DNA from: a virus
Length of the DNA: 24,413 nt
IMG/VR virus record: IMGVR_UViG_3300045454_000012
Location: 1-24,413 of that record
Strand: one strand, 5' to 3'
Shown: positions 1,346 to 23,714 of the stretch, piece after piece
How the letters are laid out: each line of letters starts with the position of its first letter
Numbering within the stretch: position 1 is the stretch's first letter
Made by a program: the position numbers and the translations under genes
Notes under the pieces: generated by a model
Seen by the model: only the letters and a program-made list of their open reading frames with translations
Told to the model about the DNA's origin: nothing
The model's database searches: none

Positions 1346-1995
1346 TGGCGCAGACGGTTTCCATATCGTCTCGGATCGAGGCATTGGAAGCCGCCGAGAG
1401 GCGCATTTCGACTATTGAAGCGACGAAATTGTCGTCAATGCCGATGGCTGAAGCCTTGTCGGTGTCATGGCCGACGCTGCGCCGATGGTGTGATCTTCCC
1501 GCATTTGCCGACAGCGGCGCATTCGTTCGCGGCGGGAACGGCATCGAATGGGAGTTCGACCCGAAAAAGACGGTTGCCGCCCTGCTCGCCCATTTCCGGG
1601 GCGAGATGACGAAGCGGCAGGATCGCAACCGGCGTGTCGTGGAATCGGTCGGTCTGGATATGGACCCCGAGGAAGCGGGGCGGATCGACATGGCCGAGCT
1701 TACCCGGCAGGTGAACCTCACGCTCGCCATTCAGGAAAACAAGATGAAGTCCGGGGGCTATGTCCCGGCGACCGACCTGCGCGACTTCCTGCGCGGATAT
1801 AACCAGTCAGCCGTTTCAGCGGTGCTCGGGGTGGGGTCAAAGATCGACCCGACCGGCGCCCTGCCCGCCAGCATCCGCACGGCGATGACTGAGGAACTGC
1901 GCAAGGTCGCGGTCGGGATGCAGTCGATGTGCAGCAAATTCGTCAGGGAGTCCGGTGCGGGTTCTAACCAAGCAGGAGATCGCGGAAGCATGTGA
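1345..1995 (+). CDS. terminase small subunit (Nu1-like)
   Basis: A 216-residue DNA-packaging protein expected to bind the phage packaging site and recruit the large terminase. The start chosen is ATG 1345; the frame continues upstream to a GTG at 1306, but MAQTVSIS is the natural beginning. Residues about 35-75 form a winged-helix-like segment (MAEALSVSWPTLRRWCDLPAF, followed by FVRGGNGIEWEFDPKKTVAALLAHF), the pattern used by Nu1-type subunits to pick a specific site. Residues about 108-150 form a helical, probably oligomerising region. The 3' end overlaps the large terminase gene by about 40 bases if that gene starts at GTG 1955. Gene order directly before a gpA-type terminase strongly supports the call. 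Confidence 0.8.
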   Translation: MAQTVSISSRIEALEAAERRISTIEATKLSSMPMAEALSVSWPTLRRWCDLPAFADSGAFVRGGNGIEWEFDPKKTVAALLAHFRGEMTKRQDRNRRVVESVGLDMDPEEAGRIDMAELTRQVNLTLAIQENKMKSGGYVPATDLRDFLRGYNQSAVSAVLGVGSKIDPTGALPASIRTAMTEELRKVAVGMQSMCSKFVRESGAGSNQAGDRGSM

Positions 1996-4078
1996 GATGA
2001 TCGCGCGGGATGCGTTCTGCGCCGACATCTTCACCATCGCGACCGAAACGCTCCGCTTCCTTGAGCCGCCGCGAGACATATCGACCCTCGAATATTCGGT
2101 CGAACATCGGAAAATACGCCAGTCCGATGGCGAGACGGCGGATTGGTCGCTCGACCTAACCCCCTATCTCGCCGCGCCCATGGCCGCGCTCGACGCGCCC
2201 GGCGTCAACGAGGTCATCGTGCCCAAGCCTGCGCGCTCGGGCGGCACTGTCGTCGCCGAGAATTATGCGCTCAAGACGATGGAGTTCGGCCCATCCGGCG
2301 ACATCATGTGGTATCTCGCCGGGCCGGACGAAGTGTCCAGCTATGCCGAGCGCGTCTTCAAGCCGCTGTTCGAGGATCACGAAGGGGTGGCCGCAAAGAT
2401 AGGCGGCGGCCAGAGCGACAATACGCTGCGGCGCAAGCGGATCGGCGGTTACACGGTCGAGCTGCTCGCGATGTCGGGCAAGACGACGACCAACCGTCAG
2501 GGCCGGTTCATCGTTTTCGACGAGCCCGACAGCTACAACAAGAAATTCGCGTCGAACTTCCTTGAGCAGGGCCGCCAGCGCCAGCGCATGGTCGGCTCGC
2601 TGCGCAAGATTTACGCCTGCGCGCACCCCGACATAGGATGGTCGGGCGGCATTGCGCAGGCATGGCTCCAATCGAGCCGCGGCATATTCGTGATGGCCTG
2701 CGCGGAATGCGGTGGTCACGCATCGCCCTACCCGACGAAGCACTGGCCCGACGTGCCGCGCTTCAAGCTGGATTACAAGCGAGCGCCCGAACGAACGCCG
2801 ATCGGCGAGCGGCTGAAACTGGCGCGGGAGACGGCGGCCATGATCTGCCCCCATTGCGGCGTCGAACTCGACGATGCCCAGCGCAAGGAAATGGTCGCGG
2901 GCGGCGATTACATGCACGCAGGGCAGTCGCTCGACGCGGACATCGGGATCATGGGCGACCTCGATCCAACGATCACGATGGGCTTCTGGATTCACGCGCT
3001 CATGGTGTCGCAGGTCACGCTGGCCGAACTTGCGGTCGAACTGGAAGGCGCGCGCGAACATCGCGAGCGCACCGGCAAGACGGACAAGCTGCGGCAGGTC
3101 ATGGTCCGCACCTTCGGCGAGGTTTTCGAGGGTGCTGCTGGATCGGAGAACGTCGATGCGGCAGCGCTTCGCGAGCGCACGAAGTCGATGGCCACGGGCG
3201 TCGAAGCGGTCAGCTTTCGCATGGGCGAGGTTCCCCATGGCGTCCTGTTCGCCACCGCGGCGATCGACACCGGCGGCAATCGCTTCGATGTCGTCATTCG
3301 CGGCTGGGATCTGGAACGCCGTTCGTGGCTGATCGACCGCTTTACCATCCGGCAGAGGAAGCACCCCGACGGCGTGATGCGCGATATTCGGCCGACGCGG
3401 GTCGCCGACGACTGGATGGTGCTTGAAAGTCAGGTGATCGACCGGCTGATTCCGCTGCAATCGGACCCGGCGAAAGCCCTGCCCGTCGCGGTTACGATGA
3501 TCGACACGGGCGACGGCAACGCGACCTGGCTCGCCTATGAGTTCGCGCGCCGCATGGACAGGAAGCGCTGGGGCGACTGGCGCAAGGTGCGCTGCATCAA
3601 GGGCGTCGGCGGCAAGCGTGAACGCCTCTCGGCGCCGACGAAGATTAGCAAGGACAGCGAGGGCAAGGTCGTCCAGCCGGTCATCACGCTCCACACGCTC
3701 GGCGTCGACGATCTGAAGCGTGACACGGTTTCGGACCTCGCGATCGCTGATGGTTCGCCGGGGCAATGCTATTTCGCGCTCAACACGCCGAAAGACGTCT
3801 TCGACGAGTTTTTCAACGAGACGGAGCAGGAAGGGAAATGGGTTCGCAGCGGGCCGAATGAGACGCTCGACCTCTATGCCTATGCGGAAGCAGGGCGCAT
3901 CCTGCTCGAACCTGACCGAAAGAGCCGAATTTGGGGCGAGATCGAAAAGCGTCCGATTTGGGCCCGCGCCGTGAGCCTCGTCGACGACGTGGAACCAGAG
4001 ACGCCCACATCTGAAACCCCGAGGCCAGCCAAGCCGTCGCTGCTCGATCGCTTCGACCGGCTCAACTCGCGCCGATAG
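1955..4078 (+). CDS. terL: terminase large subunit (lambda gpA family)
   Basis: A 707-residue ATP-driven packaging motor and nuclease that cuts concatemers and pumps DNA through the portal into the prohead. A deviant Walker A, KPARSGGT at 91-98, matches the gpA type (KSARVGYS in lambda). Walker B is RFIVFDE at 184-190 with catalytic D189 and E190. Paired cysteines at C249/C252 and C298/C301 form the zinc-binding-like element seen in this family. The nuclease domain has acidic motifs AIDTGG (D438) and MIDTGDG (D517). Length is close to the family norm (lambda 641). Start: GTG 1955 follows AGGGAG at 4-base spacing; ATG 1997, just after the small-subunit stop and preceded by GGAAG, is a real alternative and would place the Walker lysine near its lambda position. 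Confidence 0.95.
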   Translation: MRVLTKQEIAEACEMIARDAFCADIFTIATETLRFLEPPRDISTLEYSVEHRKIRQSDGETADWSLDLTPYLAAPMAALDAPGVNEVIVPKPARSGGTVVAENYALKTMEFGPSGDIMWYLAGPDEVSSYAERVFKPLFEDHEGVAAKIGGGQSDNTLRRKRIGGYTVELLAMSGKTTTNRQGRFIVFDEPDSYNKKFASNFLEQGRQRQRMVGSLRKIYACAHPDIGWSGGIAQAWLQSSRGIFVMACAECGGHASPYPTKHWPDVPRFKLDYKRAPERTPIGERLKLARETAAMICPHCGVELDDAQRKEMVAGGDYMHAGQSLDADIGIMGDLDPTITMGFWIHALMVSQVTLAELAVELEGAREHRERTGKTDKLRQVMVRTFGEVFEGAAGSENVDAAALRERTKSMATGVEAVSFRMGEVPHGVLFATAAIDTGGNRFDVVIRGWDLERRSWLIDRFTIRQRKHPDGVMRDIRPTRVADDWMVLESQVIDRLIPLQSDPAKALPVAVTMIDTGDGNATWLAYEFARRMDRKRWGDWRKVRCIKGVGGKRERLSAPTKISKDSEGKVVQPVITLHTLGVDDLKRDTVSDLAIADGSPGQCYFALNTPKDVFDEFFNETEQEGKWVRSGPNETLDLYAYAEAGRILLEPDRKSRIWGEIEKRPIWARAVSLVDDVEPETPTSETPRPAKPSLLDRFDRLNSRR

Positions 4079-4097: not shown

Positions 4098-4343
4098 ATG
4101 TACGCATTCATCTTCAACCAGCGCGTCAAGCATCTGCGCCTCGATTTTCACCCGACCGTGGTTTACGGCTTCGAAGATCCCGACGCGGCGCCCTTTTTCA
4201 CCGCGCTTGGCTTCGGTGAAACGACCGATGAAACCCCCGTGGTCGTCATTTCCGCCGACGAACTGAACATTGACCCGGAAACGGTGATGGCATCGTCCAA
4301 CTATGGCGAGCGCCGCGGCCAGCGCGTTATCGAAGGGGGCTGA
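4098..4343 (+). CDS. small protein of unknown function
   Basis: An 81-residue protein with ATG 4098 and AAGGA about 10 bases upstream. It begins MYAFIFNQRV and appears to alternate short beta strands and turns, with an acidic middle (GETTDETPVVVISADELNIDPE). There is no signal peptide or membrane segment. It sits directly after the large terminase, where lambdoid phages place the small gpW-type joining protein, but it does not look like gpW, and a better gpW match lies at 7017-7541. Three bases separate it from the next gene, so the two are probably co-translated. No function is assigned. Confidence 0.75.
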   Translation: MYAFIFNQRVKHLRLDFHPTVVYGFEDPDAAPFFTALGFGETTDETPVVVISADELNIDPETVMASSNYGERRGQRVIEGG

Positions 4344-4346
4344 ATA

Positions 4347-4712
4347 ATGGCGAAGCGCATGAACGACGCGGGCGCTGATGCGGCCCTGGCCTATTGGTCC
4401 GATGCGGACAAGATGGTTCTCTGTTCCGCCGAGCCGACAAACTACACCGAAGCCAACGCCACCTATGCGCTGGCTGATGTCGCACCGACGTTCGATGCTA
4501 TCGCTAATGGCGATGTATCGGGCCGTAAGCGCGGGGTGCAAGCCAAGACAGGTGTTGCGGTCGTCACGTCCGGCACGGCGACGCATATCGCGCTAATTAA
4601 GACTGGCGACACTACTCTCCGATATGTTTCGACGACGGCCAGTCAAGCGGTCGCATCCGGCGGCACCGTTGATATCGGCGCGTGGGCGATCGAAGTCCGC
4701 GATCCGACCTGA
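4347..4712 (+). CDS. probable virion-associated protein of a widespread phage family
   Basis: A 121-residue protein. The pattern MAKRMNDAGADAALAY at the start, then CSAEPTNYTEANATYALADV, a GRK motif, SGTATHIAL and a final VDIGAWAIEVRDPT is one I recall from many phage genomes, where the protein is uncharacterised and sits beside structural genes. It looks mainly beta-stranded after a short N-terminal helix. It lies between the terminase and a repeat-rich fibre-like gene, so a role as a small virion component, such as a fibre base or decoration, is plausible. That role is inference from context. Confidence 0.75.
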   Translation: MAKRMNDAGADAALAYWSDADKMVLCSAEPTNYTEANATYALADVAPTFDAIANGDVSGRKRGVQAKTGVAVVTSGTATHIALIKTGDTTLRYVSTTASQAVASGGTVDIGAWAIEVRDPT

Positions 4713-4716
4713 CCTA

Positions 4717-4736
4717 ACGGGCGGTAGATAGCCCGT
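4717..4736 (+). promoter_or_regulatory. stem-loop covering the start codon of the repeat protein gene
   Basis: ACGGGC at 4717-4722 and GCCCGT at 4731-4736 pair perfectly around the loop GGTAGATA. The right arm includes the first two bases of the GTG start at 4735, and the left arm and loop hold the only purine-rich sequence that could bind ribosomes. Folding would therefore reduce initiation. It is a short stem and could be coincidental. Confidence 0.35.
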
Positions 4737-7020
4737 GGCGACATTAACGGCAGGCGTTGACGGTACAGCAACCGGCTACAGCGACGGGACGCTTGGCGGC
4801 TCCGCATTCGGCACCTTCACCGGGACGCTTGGCGGCGCGACGGTAAACCTGCTCGCCACCGATAGTGCCACGCCGAATGTTATCGATGTATTCACCGCCG
4901 CAGGCAGCTTTTCGGCAGTTAACGGCAAGCCCCTCGACATCGACGGGACGATTTACCCACAATCGGCCTGCACTGATTTTGGCACGTTCGTTCGGTCCAC
5001 CTACACTGCTACCGGATTTTTGTTCGTCAACACCACGGTCTATGCGGTCGATTTAGCCGTCTATGCAGGGCCGACGCATGTAGGAACGACGCTCGGGCTG
5101 GGCGGCGCCGGATCGATTGCCGTAGCCTTCGGTTCGACGGGCCGCGCTGCAGGCGACCGCATGTTCATCGTCGTGATGACGGCGAACGAGGCGGTTCCTG
5201 CCGTCGCGGGTTGGACGGTTGTCACACCGGACAGCGGCACGGCGTCACGCGGAACGGCAGGAGCCGCTGGCGGGGTTCGTTGCACCGTTCTGACCAAGGT
5301 CAGCGACGGGACAGAAACAAACGTCACGATCGGCGACAGCGGCAACATTCAATATGCTGCCGGGATTGTCGTTCGCGGCGACAGCGGGGCAGATGTCGAT
5401 CTTGGCGTCAGCATCGGGGGCAACGCCGCAGCATCGACGAGCGGCAGCTTTACCGGCGTAACGACGGACGGTGACAATCAGCTTATCCTGACGTTCGTCG
5501 CCACTGACCGCGATGCGTCTGCGGCAAGTTGGTCAAGCCAGTCGAATGCCAATCTCGGAAATCTGACCGAGCGGTTCGACGGCGGCACCTCGACCAACAC
5601 AGGTGGCGGTGTCGCGATCTATACCGGCGAAAAGCTGGTTGCGGGCGCGACGGGAACGACGACGGCCACGCAAGCGGCGAGCGCGGCATATTGCTGGATC
5701 ACGCTGGCGGTCAAGAATGCCGCGGGTGGCACCCCATCGGTAACAGTCAACGGCGCTGCCCATACGCACACGGCATCCAGCCCGTCGCTTGCGGCGAAGT
5801 CATCGGTGACGCCGAACAGTGCGGCGAGCGTTCATGTTGCATCGTCGCCGTCGCTGGCGGCGAAATCGACGGTCTCGCCAAATGGCGCGGCTCACGCGAA
5901 CGTGGCGAGCAGCCCGACCATATCGGCGCAGTCGTCGGTCGCACCGGAAAGCGCTTCGCATGTCAGCACGGCAAGCAGTCCGACCATCGGGACGCCGGTT
6001 GCGATTTCGCCGGATAGCGCGGCATCGGCGACGACATCGACCGAACCGACCATCGCGGCCAAGTCGTCGATCGCGCCCGAGAGTACGGCGCATGCGCACA
6101 CGGCACAAAGCCCGACGATCACGACGGCGAACAGTGTGGCGCCGGATAGCGCGGCCCATGCCCAGGAGGCGAGCGAGCCGACGCTTGCAACGAATAATCA
6201 GGTGGCGCCGGATTCGGCTGCGCACATTACGGTATCGAATAGTCCGACGGTCGCCGCGGCATCCACGGTGGCTCCTGACGGTGCAGCACACGACCTCGCA
6301 GCAGGACAGCCGAGCATCGCAGCCGCTTCGTCGGTGGCTCCCGATGGTACATATCATGCGTCGACAGCGACCAGCCCGTCAGTTTCGACCGGCGGATCGG
6401 TTGCGGTGGACGGAAGTACCCACGAACAGGATGCGACGTCCCCGGCTGTCGCAGCACGATCGGCCGTACAGCCGAACGACGCGAGCCATGACAGCGCAGC
6501 GACCAGCCCGTCGATCGCGGCCAATTCATCGGTGGGTGTCGAAAGCGCCGCGCATGTTCACGAGGCGACAAGCCCGAGCCTGTCGGGTGCGCTCGCCATC
6601 GCGCCCGCATCGGCGGTCCATGCGCACGTGGCAGGGCAGCCAAACATCGCCTGGAAAGGGCTGATCGCAGCCAATGATGCGGCGCACGAATTGACGTCGA
6701 CCGAGCCCGGTATTGCGGCCCGGTCAGCCATCTCGCCTTACTCTGCGGCCCACGATCAAGCTGCAACCTCGCCCCTGCTTGCGTCTGCCAGCTCGATAGC
6801 GGTGGCGTCCGCCGTCCATGCAACTCTGGCGTCGTCGCCCACGGTAAGGATCACCCTCCCCCCGTCTAACCTTCGGACGGCAGGGGGACCAAGGCCGCGC
6901 AGCGTCGCGACCACAGAACAAAGCCGCGTTGCCTCTCCGAGCCGGGAGGCGCGCATCGCCCAACCCGCCAGACCGCCGCGCGTGGTCGCGACCGCAACTC
7001 GGAAGAGGATCGCATCTTGA
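4735..7020 (+). CDS. repeat-rich structural protein, probable phage fibre
   Basis: A 761-residue protein starting at GTG 4735, 22 bases after the previous stop. Residues 1 to about 115 are Gly/Thr/Ala-rich beta strands. About 115-330 resemble the beta-sandwich domains of phage fibres (AAGDRMFIVVMTANEA, WTVVTPDSG, AYCWITLAVKNA). Residues 334-707 are 17 back-to-back units of exactly 22 residues with core SAAHxHxAxSPxLAAxSSVxP. Residues 722-761 are a degenerate 9-residue repeat with Arg first in each unit, making the end strongly basic. I recall phage proteins combining a 22-residue HALTS/HxH repeat with ESRT-type 9-residue repeats; this is a diverged relative. The next gene begins with a fibre-adaptor-like domain, suggesting this protein is displayed on the virion. 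Its exact location is unknown. Confidence 0.8.
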   Translation: MATLTAGVDGTATGYSDGTLGGSAFGTFTGTLGGATVNLLATDSATPNVIDVFTAAGSFSAVNGKPLDIDGTIYPQSACTDFGTFVRSTYTATGFLFVNTTVYAVDLAVYAGPTHVGTTLGLGGAGSIAVAFGSTGRAAGDRMFIVVMTANEAVPAVAGWTVVTPDSGTASRGTAGAAGGVRCTVLTKVSDGTETNVTIGDSGNIQYAAGIVVRGDSGADVDLGVSIGGNAAASTSGSFTGVTTDGDNQLILTFVATDRDASAASWSSQSNANLGNLTERFDGGTSTNTGGGVAIYTGEKLVAGATGTTTATQAASAAYCWITLAVKNAAGGTPSVTVNGAAHTHTASSPSLAAKSSVTPNSAASVHVASSPSLAAKSTVSPNGAAHANVASSPTISAQSSVAPESASHVSTASSPTIGTPVAISPDSAASATTSTEPTIAAKSSIAPESTAHAHTAQSPTITTANSVAPDSAAHAQEASEPTLATNNQVAPDSAAHITVSNSPTVAAASTVAPDGAAHDLAAGQPSIAAASSVAPDGTYHASTATSPSVSTGGSVAVDGSTHEQDATSPAVAARSAVQPNDASHDSAATSPSIAANSSVGVESAAHVHEATSPSLSGALAIAPASAVHAHVAGQPNIAWKGLIAANDAAHELTSTEPGIAARSAISPYSAAHDQAATSPLLASASSIAVASAVHATLASSPTVRITLPPSNLRTAGGPRPRSVATTEQSRVASPSREARIAQPARPPRVVATATRKRIAS
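5734..6855 (+). repeat. 17 tandem 66-base units encoding 22-residue repeats
   Basis: Every unit is exactly 66 bases with no insertion or deletion. Conserved positions are a V/I-x-P near residue 3-5, a SAAH-type core with His at residue 10, an acidic or His residue near 12, and SP (or EP/QP) at 16-17. The DNA has diverged between units much more than the protein pattern, so the array is old and held by selection rather than recently amplified. The fixed length suggests one structural turn per unit, as in a beta-solenoid or trimeric fibre shaft. Confidence 0.9.
6898..7017 (+). repeat. degenerate 9-residue Arg repeat at the end of the fibre-like protein
   Basis: Reading from residue 722 the sequence falls into RSVATTEQS, RVASPSREA, RIAQPARPP, RVVATATRK and a final RIAS. 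That is four full units and a partial one, each beginning with Arg followed by hydrophobic residues. This resembles the EDRTLVVPA-type 9-residue repeats that I recall ending some phage structural proteins, though the acidic residues are mostly lost here. Confidence 0.55.
7005..7009 (+). promoter_or_regulatory. ribosome binding site for a TTG start
   Basis: GAGGA at 7005-7009 lies 7 bases before TTG 7017, inside the last codons of the preceding gene. It supports the rare TTG start, which overlaps the upstream stop as TTGA. Confidence 0.6.
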
Positions 7021-7541
7021 GCGCCAACTGGCCAGCCAAAGACCCCGACGAGGTTCTGGATTATTCGTGGGACGTGCCGCTGGACGCGGGCGACACGATC
7101 ACCGGCACCCCGACCCGCGTGGTCATCGCCGGCACGGTAACCGCAGAGGTTCCGACAGTGAACGGCGCGCTGGTCACGACATTCGTCTCGGGCGGGGTCG
7201 CCGGCGAAACCGCTGTGATCGAAATGAAGTGCCAGACCGCCGGCGGACGGTCATTTGAAGAAACGTTCGTGCTGCCGATCAAGGATTCGGCGGCGGTCCC
7301 GACCGATGCGGACAATTTACGCGCAGACATCGCTGCGCTCGAAAAAGCGCAGATGGACCTGGCTTCGGGCAAGATGGTGACCGAGGTGTGGCGCAGCGGT
7401 CGGCGCCTGATTTACGGCAAGATCACGATCAGCGCGCTGCAAACCCTGATCGACCTGAAAACGCGCAAGCTGGCGGAAGCGGAACAGGTTGCAGCTGGCA
7501 AAAAGCGTCGCCGCGCGATCACGCTGGGCTGGCCGAACTGA
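7017..7541 (+). CDS. fibre-adaptor-like domain fused to gpW-like head-tail joining domain
   Basis: A 174-residue protein with TTG start 7017 overlapping the previous stop. Residues 1 to about 90 (NWPAKDPDEVLDYSWDV, DTITGTPT, TFVSGGVAGE, TAGGRSFEETFVLPIKD) match the beta-sandwich pattern of small phage fiber-tail adaptor proteins. Residues about 98-155 (DNLRADIAALEKAQ, GKMVTEVWRSGRRLIYGK, ISALQTLIDLKTRKLAEAE) match the helix-hairpin-helix plan of lambda gpW, which joins the filled head to the tail at the portal. A basic tail KKRRR follows. Lambda gpW is 68 residues and stands alone, so the fusion is notable. The portal gene follows immediately, the gpW position. The domain calls are by pattern; the gpW part is the surer. 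Confidence 0.8.
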   Translation: MSANWPAKDPDEVLDYSWDVPLDAGDTITGTPTRVVIAGTVTAEVPTVNGALVTTFVSGGVAGETAVIEMKCQTAGGRSFEETFVLPIKDSAAVPTDADNLRADIAALEKAQMDLASGKMVTEVWRSGRRLIYGKITISALQTLIDLKTRKLAEAEQVAAGKKRRRAITLGWPN

Positions 7542-7542
7542 C

Positions 7543-9192
7543 ATGAGCATGTTCGGAAAAATGAGCGCTGCGGTCACCGCGGCGCGATCGGCGTTGCTCG
7601 GCAGCAATCAACGTGACGCGGCGCGCCGGGACATCTCGGAAATGCGGGGATGGTCCAAACGTCCGGGTTTCGCGGGCACGGTATCGCAGAGCGACATCGA
7701 CCTGATCCTGGGCCGAGCGCGCGACCTCGACGAGAATAATGGCTGGATCAACGGCGGCCTCGACCGCCGCGTCGAAGCGGTCATCGGCGGCCGCATCCAA
7801 CTCTCGGCCCAGCCGGTCTACTCGCTGCTCGGCCGCGACATCGGCTGGCGCATGGACTGGTCGCGCAAGGTGCAGGCGCGGTTCAAGGTTTGGGCGAACG
7901 ACATCGAGCGTCGCAATGATGCCCGCCAGCGCCTCTCTTTTGGGGCGCAGGCAAAGCTCGCCTATCTGACGTATTTCCGCGATGGCGAGGTGGCGGCAGA
8001 GGTTCGTGACGACTTTCGCGGCATGTCGAACCCGACCAACATCATGCTGGTCGAGCCCGAGCGGATTTCGACCCCGGATTATCTCGTTCACGAGGAAGGT
8101 CCGATGCTGCGCAACGGCGTTCGCATGGACGCCAATGGGGCGGCGATCGGCTATTACGTCCGCTCGGGCCACCCCGATGACCCGCACGCGGCGCTGCGCG
8201 CGACGCGGTGGGACTATATCCCGGCGCGCGGGCCGACCGGGCGCGCCAAGTTCGTCCACGCCTTCTCGCCGCGCCGCGTCGAGCAGATGCGTGGCATCTC
8301 GCGCCTCGCCGAGGCGATGGTGCCGTCGAAGATGGTCGACCGCATCGACCGCGCCGAACTGGCGGCTGCGCTCAAGTCGGCGATCTACAGTTTTTTCATC
8401 AAGTCGCCCGGCACGACGACGGACCTTGAAGAGGCGCTTGCACCGGGAAGCGAGCAGGCCGGCGAAGGCTGGATCGAAGATTATCTCGACTATCGCGGGC
8501 GCAACCCCGTCACGGTCGACAATGCCAGCGTCGTTCATCTGCTCCCCGACGAGGATGTGGTTCAGCCGAACCGCAACAGCCCGAACAGCAATTATCCCGA
8601 TTTCGTGCGGTTCGTGCTTCAGAAGATCGCCAGCTCGATGGGGATCAGCTACCAACAGCTGTCAGGCGACTGGGCAAGTATAAATTACTCGTCGGCGCGC
8701 GCGCTGCTCAACGAAATCTGGCGCTCGATCCTTGAAGATCGGCACTTCTTCACGCAAGCGTTCCTTACCCCGCTCTATGCCGCATGGCTGGAATGGGAAG
8801 TCGCGAACGGCGATGTGAAGATTCCCGGTGGCCCCGCGGCTTTCTATCGCAACAAGACCGCGATTTGCTTCGCCGAATGGATCGGGCCGGGACGCGGATC
8901 AGTGGACCCGAACAAGGAAGCCGACGCGGCGAACAAGGACACGGCGGCGGGCCGGACATCGACAATCGAGCATATCCTCGAACGCGGACGCGACCCCGAC
9001 GACGTGCTTGCCGAGGAGGCATTCTATCAGGCCGCGCGCGACGGGATGGGCCTCGCGCCGGTGCAGCACGACATCAAGGCGGCTGCGGAAGGCGCCGACA
9101 GCGGCGCTACCGGCACCGAAGAGGATCGGGACGGCGACGGCGTCCCGATGGAGGAGCGCCGCAAAGCCAAACCGAAGGGGGAAGAGCAGTGA
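7543..9192 (+). CDS. portal protein (lambda gpB family)
   Basis: A 549-residue protein that forms the dodecameric ring at the head vertex through which DNA enters and leaves. The start chosen is ATG 7543, just after the gpW-domain stop; the frame runs further upstream but would overlap that gene. Family marks are RDIGWRMDW and the basic-aromatic helix near 100-118, the strand NIMLVEPERIS, RNGVRMDANGAAIGYYV near 188-205, and the hallmark SYQQLSGDW with INYSSAR at 380-386. The C-terminal 30 residues are charged and low-complexity, as in many gpB relatives. Length is close to lambda (533). It overlaps the protease gene by GTGA. Confidence 0.95.
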   Translation: MSMFGKMSAAVTAARSALLGSNQRDAARRDISEMRGWSKRPGFAGTVSQSDIDLILGRARDLDENNGWINGGLDRRVEAVIGGRIQLSAQPVYSLLGRDIGWRMDWSRKVQARFKVWANDIERRNDARQRLSFGAQAKLAYLTYFRDGEVAAEVRDDFRGMSNPTNIMLVEPERISTPDYLVHEEGPMLRNGVRMDANGAAIGYYVRSGHPDDPHAALRATRWDYIPARGPTGRAKFVHAFSPRRVEQMRGISRLAEAMVPSKMVDRIDRAELAAALKSAIYSFFIKSPGTTTDLEEALAPGSEQAGEGWIEDYLDYRGRNPVTVDNASVVHLLPDEDVVQPNRNSPNSNYPDFVRFVLQKIASSMGISYQQLSGDWASINYSSARALLNEIWRSILEDRHFFTQAFLTPLYAAWLEWEVANGDVKIPGGPAAFYRNKTAICFAEWIGPGRGSVDPNKEADAANKDTAAGRTSTIEHILERGRDPDDVLAEEAFYQAARDGMGLAPVQHDIKAAAEGADSGATGTEEDRDGDGVPMEERRKAKPKGEEQ

Positions 9193-20838: not shown

Positions 20839-23714
20839 TCGCCTTCATCGAGGTCACCCCGCGCTGGCCCGCCCCTTCTACTCCGATCCGGGCCTGTTCG
20901 GCCGCCGACCCGCGCGCGCAGTCGTGGGACGGCCATATCTGGGCCGCGGCGATATTCGATCCCGGCACCCTCGCCGTCACGCTGTTCAACGGCGCGATCG
21001 GCAGCGCGGTCGAGGCGTCGGTCGCGCCGATGACGCTTGCCGAGGAAGCCCTGCTCGAATCCTTCCCCGCCGCGAAGGGCGTTCGCTGGGAGGGCGCCTC
21101 CTATCGGCTTTGGGTCGGCGAGGTCTCGACCGGCGGGGTGACCGCGAACGAGGTGTCGCGGGGACGGGTGTCGCGCTTCGAGAAGGACGGGGCGGCGATC
21201 AAGCTGTCGCTCGACCCCGCCGGCGAAGCGGGCGCGGCCAAGGTGCTCGATCTGGAATATGCCGGAACCGGAGGCGCAGAAGGCAGCGCAAACCTCAAGG
21301 GGAAATTGAAACCATGGCTTTTCGGCCATGCGCAGAATGTCGAGCCCGTGCTGATCGACGAGGATAATTCGGTCTATCAGTTTTCGGGATATGGCCCGAT
21401 CCAGTCCGTCGACGCTCTTTACGAGCGCGGAAGTAGTTTCGGGGCCAGTGTGGGCGACCATGCGAGCTATGCGGCACTGGTCGCGGCGTCGATCCCGGCT
21501 GGTCGTTGGGCCACTTGCCTCGCATCGGGCATGATCCGGCTCGGCGCTCCGCAATACGGGGTCATCACCGGCGATGTGAAGGGTGACTATCAGGGGGAGG
21601 TGCAGCGGCGTCACCCCGGCGCCATCCTCCAACGGATCGCCGCGCATCGCTCAATCACCGCTCTCGACACTGCCAGCCTGAACGCGCTGGACGCTTTCGC
21701 CGCGACCCTGCCTTCGGGCGGCAACATCAATCTGCTGCTCAGCGAGCAAACGACCTTCATCGACCTCGCGCGCAAACTGGCGGCGGGCTTCAACGCTCAG
21801 GCGGGGTTCGACCTAATGGGTCGCCTCATCACGCCGCGAATCAAGTTCGGGGCGTCGAGCTTCACGATCCATTCGCAGGGCAAAAGGGAGCCGCTGGTCG
21901 TCGATTTCGTCGAAGCCGACACGCCTCCGCCATACAAGCAGATCGTCATGTCTGGCGAGATTTGCTGGCGCGTCCACGACCTCGCGAACGACATCGCCTT
22001 TTATGCGATCCCGACCGAGCGCGGCGTCTATGACGACGCGGAAACATATCGCGAAGGCGATATTGTCGTTTTGACGGACGGATCGCGCTGGATTTACGTC
22101 AATCCAGCACCGACGGCCGGCAACGCGCCGCCGACCTGGCCCGAAACATCGAACGCCTGGTGGACCAACCTCACCCCGCCCAGCGCCGCCCCGACCGATC
22201 GCTCGCCGACGCCGCCGCTCGATCTGAACGAAGGCACCATCTGGATCGCCCCCGACGGGCATCCCTACCGCTTCGGGCGGCGGCCGTGGATCGGCGCGGA
22301 CGGCAATGCGTGGATCGGCGCCGACGGCGAGCCGTGGCTCGGCAGCGGCTATGAGGACGTGCAGGACCAGCTCGGCGTGCAGGCGATGGCGGCGGCCGAA
22401 GCGGTGACCGCGCAGGTCGCGCGCATCGCCTCGGACGGATGGCTGACGGCGGGCGAAAAATCTGGCCTCGTCCTGTCGCACAAGGCGATGATCGAGAACC
22501 ATATCGCGCTCGACGCGAAGGCGGCGGGGCTGGGGGTCGCGGCGACCGAGCGCACGAACGCGACGAATGCGGTCAACGCGCTCAACGCCTATCTGACCAG
22601 CCTGTCCCCCGCGTGGAACGACACGACGCAGGACAGCGAGGCCGACGCCGCGACGATAACCGGCCTGTGGGGCGACGCGGCGCAGAAGGTCGCGCTGTTG
22701 CAGGCGGCGGTGCAAGGCCTGCCGGGACCGCAGGGCGATCCGGGCACGAACGGCATCGACGGCATCGACGGCGACGACGGCAAGCTGGTCGAGTTCGTCT
22801 GGAAGCGCGCGGAGAGCCAGCCCGCGACGCCGACGGGCAACGGCATTCCGTCTGGCTGGTCGGACGATCCGCCCGCGGGCAGCGACCCTTTGTGGATGTC
22901 GAAGGCCAAGCAGGAACTCGACGGCACGCTGGTCGCGGGCGAGAGCTGGTCGACGCCGGTCCGGCACGACGGCCCACCGGGGATCAGTCCCGTTTCAGCG
23001 GTGGCGGTCCCCGCCAGCAAACAGTTCACGGCCGACTCCGACGGCGTCGTCAAGATGGGTCAGTTGCCGTTCAATGTCGCGATCGACGCGATAAAGGCGG
23101 GCGCGCCGATCGGCGGCACGGTTTCGGTTGTGAGCGTGTCGGGATGCACCGCGACGGCGATTTCGGGTGGCTTCACGATCGACACGATCAGCGCCGACGC
23201 GGGCTTCGTCCAGTGGAAGATCGTCGCGACCGACGGGCAGGAAGTCATCGGCAAGATGAGCTTTTCTCGCCAGCGCGACCCCGCCTCGGGGGGCTCGGTT
23301 TCGGTGAACTTCAGCAGCACATCGTGGTGGGGAGACGGCAGCTATGCGGCGAGTGGCCCGACGACGGTGTTGCCCGCGTCCTCGATCGGAAAGCTGCGCA
23401 TTTCGGGCTACGCCAGTTTCTATTCGGCCGCCAATGGCACCGCGACGCTGACGGCGAAGCTGCAATATCGGGCGGTCGGCAGCGGGACATGGATCGACAG
23501 CGGCTTTTCGGCGACGGGCAATGCCTTCAAGTCTCCGGACCTCGAGGGCGAGCCGGGCGAGAACAGCCCCGGCGACGTGTTCCCAAATGGTGAGCTGACC
23601 GGGCTCACCGCGGATGCGCCCTATGAAATCCAGCTGGTCGGCAATCGGTCGACATCGGGAACGGCGATCGCTAGCGCGACCGGCTTTGTATCGATGACGC
23701 AGGTGCTGACATGA
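20835..23714 (+). CDS. tail hub/tip protein with carbohydrate-binding-like and collagen-like segments
   Basis: A 959-residue protein with GTG 20835 overlapping the tape measure stop (GTGA). Residues 1 to about 375 form a beta-rich region like the hub/tip proteins of siphovirus tails (YRLWVGEVSTGG, FGHAQNVEPVLID, QFSGYGPIQSVDALY). About 398-447 match the chitin/carbohydrate-binding pattern: YREGDIVVLTDGSRWIYV, then PPTWPET and a WW pair. Residues 484-505 are an 8-residue repeat. About 530-625 form a helical domain (DGWLTAGEKSGLVLSH, AYLTSLSPAWND) that I recall from other phage tip proteins. Seven Gly-X-Y triplets lie at 628-648, and beta-sandwich material closes the protein. It probably binds the cell surface. 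It replaces the separate lambda M, L, K, I and J genes, which I do not see. Confidence 0.8.
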   Translation: MIAFIEVTPRWPAPSTPIRACSAADPRAQSWDGHIWAAAIFDPGTLAVTLFNGAIGSAVEASVAPMTLAEEALLESFPAAKGVRWEGASYRLWVGEVSTGGVTANEVSRGRVSRFEKDGAAIKLSLDPAGEAGAAKVLDLEYAGTGGAEGSANLKGKLKPWLFGHAQNVEPVLIDEDNSVYQFSGYGPIQSVDALYERGSSFGASVGDHASYAALVAASIPAGRWATCLASGMIRLGAPQYGVITGDVKGDYQGEVQRRHPGAILQRIAAHRSITALDTASLNALDAFAATLPSGGNINLLLSEQTTFIDLARKLAAGFNAQAGFDLMGRLITPRIKFGASSFTIHSQGKREPLVVDFVEADTPPPYKQIVMSGEICWRVHDLANDIAFYAIPTERGVYDDAETYREGDIVVLTDGSRWIYVNPAPTAGNAPPTWPETSNAWWTNLTPPSAAPTDRSPTPPLDLNEGTIWIAPDGHPYRFGRRPWIGADGNAWIGADGEPWLGSGYEDVQDQLGVQAMAAAEAVTAQVARIASDGWLTAGEKSGLVLSHKAMIENHIALDAKAAGLGVAATERTNATNAVNALNAYLTSLSPAWNDTTQDSEADAATITGLWGDAAQKVALLQAAVQGLPGPQGDPGTNGIDGIDGDDGKLVEFVWKRAESQPATPTGNGIPSGWSDDPPAGSDPLWMSKAKQELDGTLVAGESWSTPVRHDGPPGISPVSAVAVPASKQFTADSDGVVKMGQLPFNVAIDAIKAGAPIGGTVSVVSVSGCTATAISGGFTIDTISADAGFVQWKIVATDGQEVIGKMSFSRQRDPASGGSVSVNFSSTSWWGDGSYAASGPTTVLPASSIGKLRISGYASFYSAANGTATLTAKLQYRAVGSGTWIDSGFSATGNAFKSPDLEGEPGENSPGDVFPNGELTGLTADAPYEIQLVGNRSTSGTAIASATGFVSMTQVLT
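22284..22349 (+). repeat. short tandem repeat encoding PWIGADGN-type units
   Basis: Two 24-base units and a partial third encode PWIGADGN, AWIGADGE and PWLGSG. The two full units are nearly identical in DNA, suggesting recent duplication. Each carries an exposed-type Trp and an ADG turn, following closely after the carbohydrate-binding-like segment. Confidence 0.7.
22716..22778 (+). repeat. collagen-like Gly-X-Y stretch
   Basis: Seven uninterrupted triplets read GLP, GPQ, GDP, GTN, GID, GID, GDD. Short collagen-like stretches are common in phage fibres, where they trimerise or link domains. A later GEP-GEN-SPG piece near 23548 is too broken to count. Confidence 0.75.

What the first reader, a model, noticed from the sequence alone, without database searches (positions are those of the whole stretch)
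4098..7541. Possible neck-anchored fibre cassette inserted between terminase and portal
Lambda has only the 68-residue gpW between gpA and the portal. Here four genes fill the gap, and the last fuses a fibre-adaptor-like domain to a gpW-like domain. gpW binds at the portal-tail junction, so the fused adaptor could tether the 761-residue repeat protein there as a collar fibre or whisker. Such fibres could aid host attachment or tail joining. The domains are seen by pattern; the assembly model is inference.
Basis: partly seen in the sequence, partly recalled or inferred. Interest (0 to 1): 0.75.

Follow-up and report, generated by a model that had tools for sequence, protein, structure and literature searches.

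The report
Phage neck fibre fused onto adaptor
In this virus of sphingomonad-type bacteria, the small protein that joins head to tail has been fused to a fibre-holding domain and sits next to genes for a long repeat fibre and a whisker-like protein, so the virus most likely carries extra fibres around its neck, built by a swappable module that has joined at least three different head-to-tail proteins.

Summary
Between terL and the lambda-type portal lie four co-directional ORFs, and the last (7017-7541, 174 aa) is a true fusion. Residues 8-86 are the fibre-tail adaptor domain Gp77 (PF23148, E 7e-16; fold match 8jou_B, Z 12.1). Residues 98-174 are gpW (E 1e-23 with a profile of stand-alone gpW relatives). 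A natural control exists: 17 relatives have only a gpW gene between terL and portal, including a Sphingopyxis prophage whose portal is 80% identical. Gp77 is absent from all eleven fusion-less records searched. The 121-aa neighbour folds like chains of Sf14 and Bas63 neck structures (Z 10.5, 10.3). The 761-aa fibre has 17 repeats of 22 residues and an arginine nonapeptide tail, which recurs in 13 of 19 fibres beside Gp77 (58 Arg pairs at spacing 9, 13.5 expected). Gp77 is also fused to the unrelated adaptor DUF4054, and in 28 of 30 sphingomonad chromosomal loci it directly precedes an HK97 gp6-type connector. All three adaptor types correspond to the first ring below the portal. Best reading: a portable neck-fibre module, here covalently built into the gpW ring. 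Virion location, copy number and tail docking are inferred. New variant of a known kind.

The parts
1955..4078 (+). Large terminase (lambda gpA type); left flank of the insertion site
   Evidence: PF05876 E 3e-35 and PF20454 E 2e-46
4098..4343 (+). 81-aa protein; conserved first gene of the cassette; function unknown
   Evidence: Relatives ahead of g121 in L005, L010, L012, L026, L028, L030; no credible family match
4347..4712 (+). 121-aa whisker-fold protein (g121), likely a neck-fibre component
   Evidence: AF2 pLDDT 93; Foldseek rank 1 9c39_K Sf14 neck E 3.5e-4, Bas63 connector 8e-4; VIA Z 10.5 and 10.3; homologue L094 43% identity, E 4e-29
4735..7020 (+). 761-aa repeat fibre protein
   Evidence: 22-aa repeat, 17 copies; relatives in L005, L009, L012, L028, L030
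5740..6861 (+). Fibre shaft: 17 x 22-residue repeats (residues 336-709)
   Evidence: Lag-22 autocorrelation 154 against a shuffled maximum of 69
6898..7017 (+). Arginine nonapeptide tail (R722, R731, R740, R749, R758): candidate docking peptide for Gp77
   Evidence: Arg period 9 in 19 Gp77-adjacent fibres: 58 pairs observed, 13.5 expected, z 14; none of 5000 shuffles above 26
7001..7009 (+). Shine-Dalgarno-like GGAAGAGGA ahead of the TTG start of the fusion gene
   Evidence: Sequence; identical in L028
7017..7541 (+). Gp77-gpW fusion protein (174 aa): fibre adaptor built into the head-tail joining protein
   Evidence: homologous fusions in L028, L030, L032, L033, L049, L050
7023..7286 (+). Gp77 beta-sandwich domain (residues 3-90)
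   Evidence: PF23148 E 7e-16; 8jou_B Z 12.1, rmsd 1.5 over 85 residues
7308..7538 (+). gpW domain (residues 98-174): two helices, GRR hairpin, basic C-arm; the only gpW found in the window
   Evidence: E 1.1e-23 with the gpW profile; 45% identical to the L027 stand-alone gpW, E 6e-17; alignment A2
7543..9192 (+). Portal protein (lambda family); right flank
   Evidence: PF05136 E 9e-83

Best explanation
The region is a portable neck-fibre module inserted at the terL-gpW junction of a lambda-type siphophage. The 174-aa product replaces the ordinary gpW. Its C-terminal half forms the dodecameric adaptor ring below the portal, and its N-terminal half places Gp77 collar domains around that ring. 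The 761-aa repeat fibre, probably with the whisker-fold 121-aa protein and the 81-aa protein, is held by those Gp77 domains, most likely through its C-terminal arginine nonapeptide tail, giving collar fibres or whiskers that add host-surface contacts beside the tail tip. Shown by sequence or predicted fold: both domains of the fusion, the fold of g121, the repeats and tail, and the gene set and its absence in sister phages. Inferred: assembly on the virion, tail-Gp77 docking, copy number (12 if every gpW is fused, against 15 in the collar of phage DEV), and the adsorption role.
For: Both domains confirmed. Fusion-less sister phages keep a stand-alone gpW in the same place (17 with a 240-294 bp gap), and no Gp77 was found in eleven fusion-less records, so the fused protein is the phage's gpW. 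Gp77 is fused to a different adaptor family, DUF4054, in L001, L005 and L009 (E 3e-20 to 6e-18; L009 matches the Pam3 adaptor, E 2e-7). In 28 of 30 sphingomonad chromosomal loci an HK97 gp6-type connector follows Gp77 directly, with 1-4 nt overlap where the start is clear (TIGR02215 E 7e-29). gpW and the RcGTA g6 adaptor are each the first dodecameric ring below the portal (PMC10721106; PMC7296036). DEV has 15 N-terminal barrels forming a collar at the 12-fold adaptor, 'like in the podophage GP4' (PMC10925440). Gp77 resembles Milano and 7-7-1 collar proteins (Z 9.1-9.6). g121 resembles Sf14 and Bas63 neck chains; Sf14 whiskers are attached by its adapter gp37 (PMC11821841). The Arg-9 tail recurs in Gp77-adjacent fibres. 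The fusion state needs four changes on both the portal and terL trees, of which well-supported branches force two and four.
Against: No experiment places these proteins on a virion. Four fusions (L032, L033, L049, L050) have no fibre or g121 next to them in the fragments held, so Gp77 may have another partner or role there. In mycobacteriophage Faith1 and relatives Gp77 lies among minor-tail genes, so Gp77 alone does not prove a neck position. Twelve fused copies would differ from the 15-fold collar known for DEV. g121 does not match the Gp80/whisker families by sequence. It is not known whether the N-terminus of gpW faces outward. L026 and Faith1 fibres lack the Arg-9 tail.
Confidence: 0.75

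Rival explanations
1. The Gp77-gpW fusion makes a collar that stabilises the head-tail joint, as the Milano collar is thought to do, and the neighbouring fibre is an independent cargo gene not held by it.
For: The Gp77 fold resembles the Milano and 7-7-1 collar proteins, and the Milano collar displays no fibres; four fusions have no adjacent fibre; L031 has a long inserted gene with an unfused gpW and no Gp77.
Against: The fibre gene overlaps the fusion start by 4 nt, and fibre, g121 and Gp77 stay together in several backbones; Gp77's named role in GP4 is fibre-tail adaptor (Pfam; entry title); the Arg-9 tail marks fibres beside Gp77.
Confidence: 0.13
2. The cassette encodes tail-tip or side fibres that attach elsewhere; the fusion is a chance by-product of insertion at a tolerant site, and the two domains act separately, perhaps after cleavage.
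For: In mycobacteriophages Gp77 lies among minor tail genes; the site between terL and gpW also takes unrelated genes, including lysis-type genes in L032 and L049.
Against: Gp77 has joined two different adaptor families in frame and abuts a third; chance insertion would not pick the same functional ring each time; the g121 fold matches neck proteins.
Confidence: 0.08
3. Gp77-gpW is only an assembly or packaging checkpoint, with no adsorption role for the fibre.
For: gpW clamps and stabilises packaged DNA in lambda (PMC10721106), and any neck change could affect packaging.
Against: Fibre length and N-terminal region vary widely between relatives (219-881 aa), as for receptor-facing fibres, while Gp77 and the tail are kept.
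Confidence: 0.04

Closest known systems
Podophage GP4 fibre I with fibre-tail adaptor gp77 (PDB 8JOU) and Bcep22-like relatives (BcepIL02 gp55-gp57)
   Same: Gp77 domain (PF23148); order of small fibre protein, repeat protein with Arg tail, then Gp77; annotated as virion-associated in BcepIL02
   Different: Stand-alone Gp77 in a short-tailed phage; a 15:12 collar is reported for DEV 'like in' GP4; no fusion to a head-tail adaptor
Lambda gpW head-tail joining protein
   Same: Sequence family, position between terL and portal, GRR hairpin, basic C-arm
   Different: Lambda gpW is 68 aa with no extra domain; here a Gp77 domain precedes it
Phage Sf14 and Bas63 neck whiskers (9C39, 9MT4)
   Same: g121 fold (Z 10.5 and 10.3); Sf14 whiskers attached at the neck through an adapter protein
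   Different: Contractile-tail phages; whisker genes follow the portal; no convincing sequence similarity
Milano and 7-7-1 collar proteins
   Same: Gp77-like beta-sandwich fold (Z 9.1-9.6); ring around the neck
   Different: Two-domain collar protein in four stacked 15-mers without fibres; a separate gene
Sphingomonad chromosomal HK97/GTA-like clusters (L093, L094)
   Same: Fibre, g121 homologue and Gp77 directly ahead of the first-ring connector gene
   Different: Separate, overlapping genes; HK97 gp6-type connector instead of gpW

Membership tests
gpW (PF02831) | Sequence profile match over the two-helix and hairpin core | tested here: met
   Direct Pfam 13.4 bits, below cut-off; relatives at the same locus pass the cut-off; locus-specific gpW profile E 1.1e-23 over residues 98-174
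gpW (PF02831) | Gene lies between large terminase and portal and is the only gpW copy | tested here: met
gpW (PF02831) | DNA-clamping hairpin arginine and portal-binding C-arm | tested here: met
   SGRRLIY aligns with lambda DGRRVEF and a KKRRR C-arm is present (roles from PMC10721106)
gpW (PF02831) | Dodecameric ring under the portal | not testable with these tools
   No complex prediction available
Gp77 fibre-tail adaptor (PF23148) | Profile match above curated cut-off | tested here: met
   58.9 bits against 27
Gp77 fibre-tail adaptor (PF23148) | Fold of GP4 gp77 | tested here: met
   8jou_B E 2.4e-6, TM 0.83 of target; Z 12.1
Gp77 fibre-tail adaptor (PF23148) | Holds a fibre on the particle | not testable with these tools
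   Needs cryo-EM or binding assay; gene adjacency only
Gp80 / whisker family (PF23140, phrog_240) for g121 | Profile match above cut-off | tested here: not met
   No Pfam hit; hhalign of A5 to FelixO1 ORF55 gives probability 1.6%
Gp80 / whisker family (PF23140, phrog_240) for g121 | Same fold as neck whisker or GP4 fibre I proteins | tested here: met
   9c39_K Z 10.5, 9mt4_L Z 10.3, 8jou_a Z 6.2; so 'folds like', not filed as a member

The most novel reading that the evidence does not exclude
Tailed phages share a mobile neck-fibre module (fibre with an arginine nonapeptide docking tail, whisker-fold protein, Gp77 collar domain) that repeatedly targets the first ring below the portal, whichever adaptor family forms it. 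Fusion to that ring fixes the number of Gp77 docking sites at 12 and removes the 15:12 mismatch seen in the DEV collar.
Probability: 0.4. Interest if true: 0.75.

Novelty: new variant of a known kind. Interest (0 to 1): 0.6.

Why it matters
Fibres on long flexible-tailed phages are usually looked for at the tail tip. A fibre built into the head-tail adaptor would add a second, neck-level site of host contact and shows how receptor-binding parts can move between unrelated phages by plugging into a conserved ring. The fusion makes a structural question testable: can a domain known from 15-fold collars work in a 12-fold ring, and how is a fibre tail docked? The Arg nonapeptide tail gives a simple sequence signature for unannotated neck-type fibres in environmental phages and in chromosomal GTA-like clusters.

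Tried and rejected
Direct PDB sequence searches with g121, with a profile of its family, with a second family member and with the fibre tail gave nothing usable; the match of the 81-aa protein to a designed repeat protein is five weak partial hits and was dismissed. Pfam has no family for the 81-aa, 121-aa or 761-aa proteins, and PHROGs gave only chance-level hits for the 121-aa one. The first genome-contig scan with the Gp77 alignment found no relative; the second, with TerL, gave the fusion-less Sphingopyxis prophage that served as control. The GP4 capsid paper does not mention gp77 or fibres, and the GP4 fibre paper (J Mol Biol 2023) is not held; GP4 statements rest on Pfam names, PDB titles and citing papers. 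In one search one fibre (L082) was read in the wrong frame and one (L094) was doubtful; the test was repeated on a clean set. Whole-fusion relatives were sought in named phages: no record covers 80% or more of the window, L009 or L049 fusions, and L033 has no match at all. Further gpW relatives (L100-L113) are stand-alone in 13 of 14 cases; L112 is a longer ORF whose extra N-terminal stretch matches no profile used here. The fold search covers mainly the Gp77 half; the gpW half was barely tested by fold.
Full report
What is there. The window is a complete IMG/VR record of 24,413 bases carrying head and tail genes of a lambda-type siphophage. Between the large terminase (1955-4078) and the lambda-family portal (7543-9192) lie four co-directional ORFs of 81, 121, 761 and 174 aa. 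The junctions are tight: gaps of 19, 3, 22, -4 and 1 nt from terL to portal, with a GGAAGAGGA ribosome site ahead of the TTG start of the 174-aa gene. The closest relative, L028, has the same start context.

The fusion is real. Pfam finds Gp77 (podophage GP4 fibre-tail adaptor) in residues 8-86, far above cut-off, but gpW only below cut-off. Relatives settle the gpW half. Portal relatives were collected and the terL-portal interval read in 25 of them, the Sphingopyxis prophage L027 included. In 17 the interval is 240-294 bp and holds only a stand-alone gpW. Six others carry a Gp77-gpW fusion (L028, L030, L032, L033, L049, L050). In L036 terL was not found in the locus, and L031 has a large insertion ahead of an unfused gpW. 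L027 has TerL 77% and portal 80% identical, and an 81-aa gpW 45% identical to residues 98-173 of the window fusion. L027's gpW and three fusions pass Pfam's gpW cut-off, and a profile of stand-alone gpW proteins hits the window at E 1.1e-23. The GRR hairpin, which holds the DNA-clamping arginine in lambda, and the basic C-arm are kept (roles from PMC10721106).

Gain or loss. Each of the 15 records with Gp77 searched has one copy; eleven fusion-less records have none. The fused state needs four changes on both the portal tree and the terL tree, of which well-supported branches force two and four. L035 shares TerL at 90% but portal at 67%, so recombination falls in this interval. Named phages hold no close relative of the whole fusion.

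The module goes with the first ring, not with one protein family. In L001, L005 and L009 Gp77 is fused instead to DUF4054; L009's copy matches the Pam3 adaptor. In L004 the C-terminal half matches phrog_17985, to which the window's gpW half is also weakly similar. In genomes of the Sphingopyxis family PF23148 occurs above cut-off in 66 of 299, and in 28 of 30 loci examined an HK97 gp6-type head-tail connector follows, with 1-4 nt overlap where the start codon is clear; 13 of 30 have a g121 homologue upstream, and L094's is 43% identical to the window's. gpW and the RcGTA g6 adaptor are both the first dodecameric ring below the portal.

Structure. The AF2 model of the fusion (mean pLDDT 81, about 90 over the Gp77 part) matches GP4 gp77 at Z 12.1, and next the collar proteins of phages Milano and 7-7-1 at Z 9.1-9.6. 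The 121-aa protein (pLDDT 93) matches chains in the Sf14 neck and Bas63 connector structures at Z 10.5 and 10.3, and GP4 fibre I at Z 6.2. Sf14 has two sets of neck whiskers, attached through adapter gp37 (PMC11821841); that the matched 108-residue chain is a whisker protein is inferred from its size and from the FelixO1 gene order. Sequence comparison does not place g121 in the Gp80 or whisker families, so it is called whisker-fold, not a member.

The fibre. Residues 336-709 are 17 copies of a 22-residue repeat. The last 40 residues are arginine nonapeptides: RSVATTEQS RVASPSREA RIAQPARPP RVVATATRK RIAS. The same period-9 arginine tail closes fibres beside Gp77 in Lacusarx, Microcystis phage Mwe-JY26, BcepIL02, Itty13 and several IMG/VR phages. 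Over 19 fibres, 58 Arg pairs at spacing 9 are seen against 13.5 expected, with no shuffle above 26; only lags 9 and 18 stand out strongly. Thirteen of 19 have three or more such pairs, against 6 of 171 control ORFs. This fits a docking peptide for Gp77 but is not proof of binding.

Mechanism. In phage DEV 15 N-terminal fibre barrels form a collar at the 12-fold adaptor, 'like in the podophage GP4' (PMC10925440). Here a Gp77 domain is tied to gpW, so the simplest model is a gpW ring with Gp77 domains around it holding the repeat fibre by its tail. If every gpW is fused, the collar has 12 places, not 15. Ring formation by the gpW half follows from homology; Gp77 position, fibre docking, copy number and a role in adsorption are inference.

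Limits. Four fusions lack an adjacent fibre in the fragments held. In mycobacteriophages Gp77 sits among minor tail genes. No complex prediction or virion data were available. Literature was limited to open papers; searches found no description of this fusion or of the Arg-9 tail, which is not proof that none exists.

Noticed in passing
L094 11616-13955: Chromosomal HK97/GTA-like cluster with the Gp77 module also encodes a non-contractile tail sheath TIM-barrel protein (PF23845, PF23844) joined to a distal tail domain (Rcc01695 family).
   Followed up: no
L063-L092: 66 of 299 genomes of the Sphingopyxis family carry Gp77, mostly stand-alone and followed directly by a head-tail connector; they may be GTA-like elements with neck fibres.
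   Followed up: partly
L031 1684-5685: Same insertion site filled by a different set (102-aa, 1119-aa and 118-aa ORFs) with gpW left unfused and no Gp77 in the record.
   Followed up: no
L032 1102-2998; L049 3619-5322: Lysis-type genes (by sequence pattern: peptidase in L049, Rz-like in both) lie between terL and the Gp77-gpW fusion.
   Followed up: no
L027 14029-14595: 188-aa ORF resembling an HNH endonuclease (by sequence pattern) between portal and S49 protease genes.
   Followed up: no
L013 2982-3350; L014 8001-8369: g121 homologue in larger phage records without a Gp77 match, so g121 may have another anchor there.
   Followed up: no
window 22283-22348: 24-base tandem repeat encoding WIGADG-type repeats inside the 959-aa protein encoded after the tape measure gene.
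   Followed up: no
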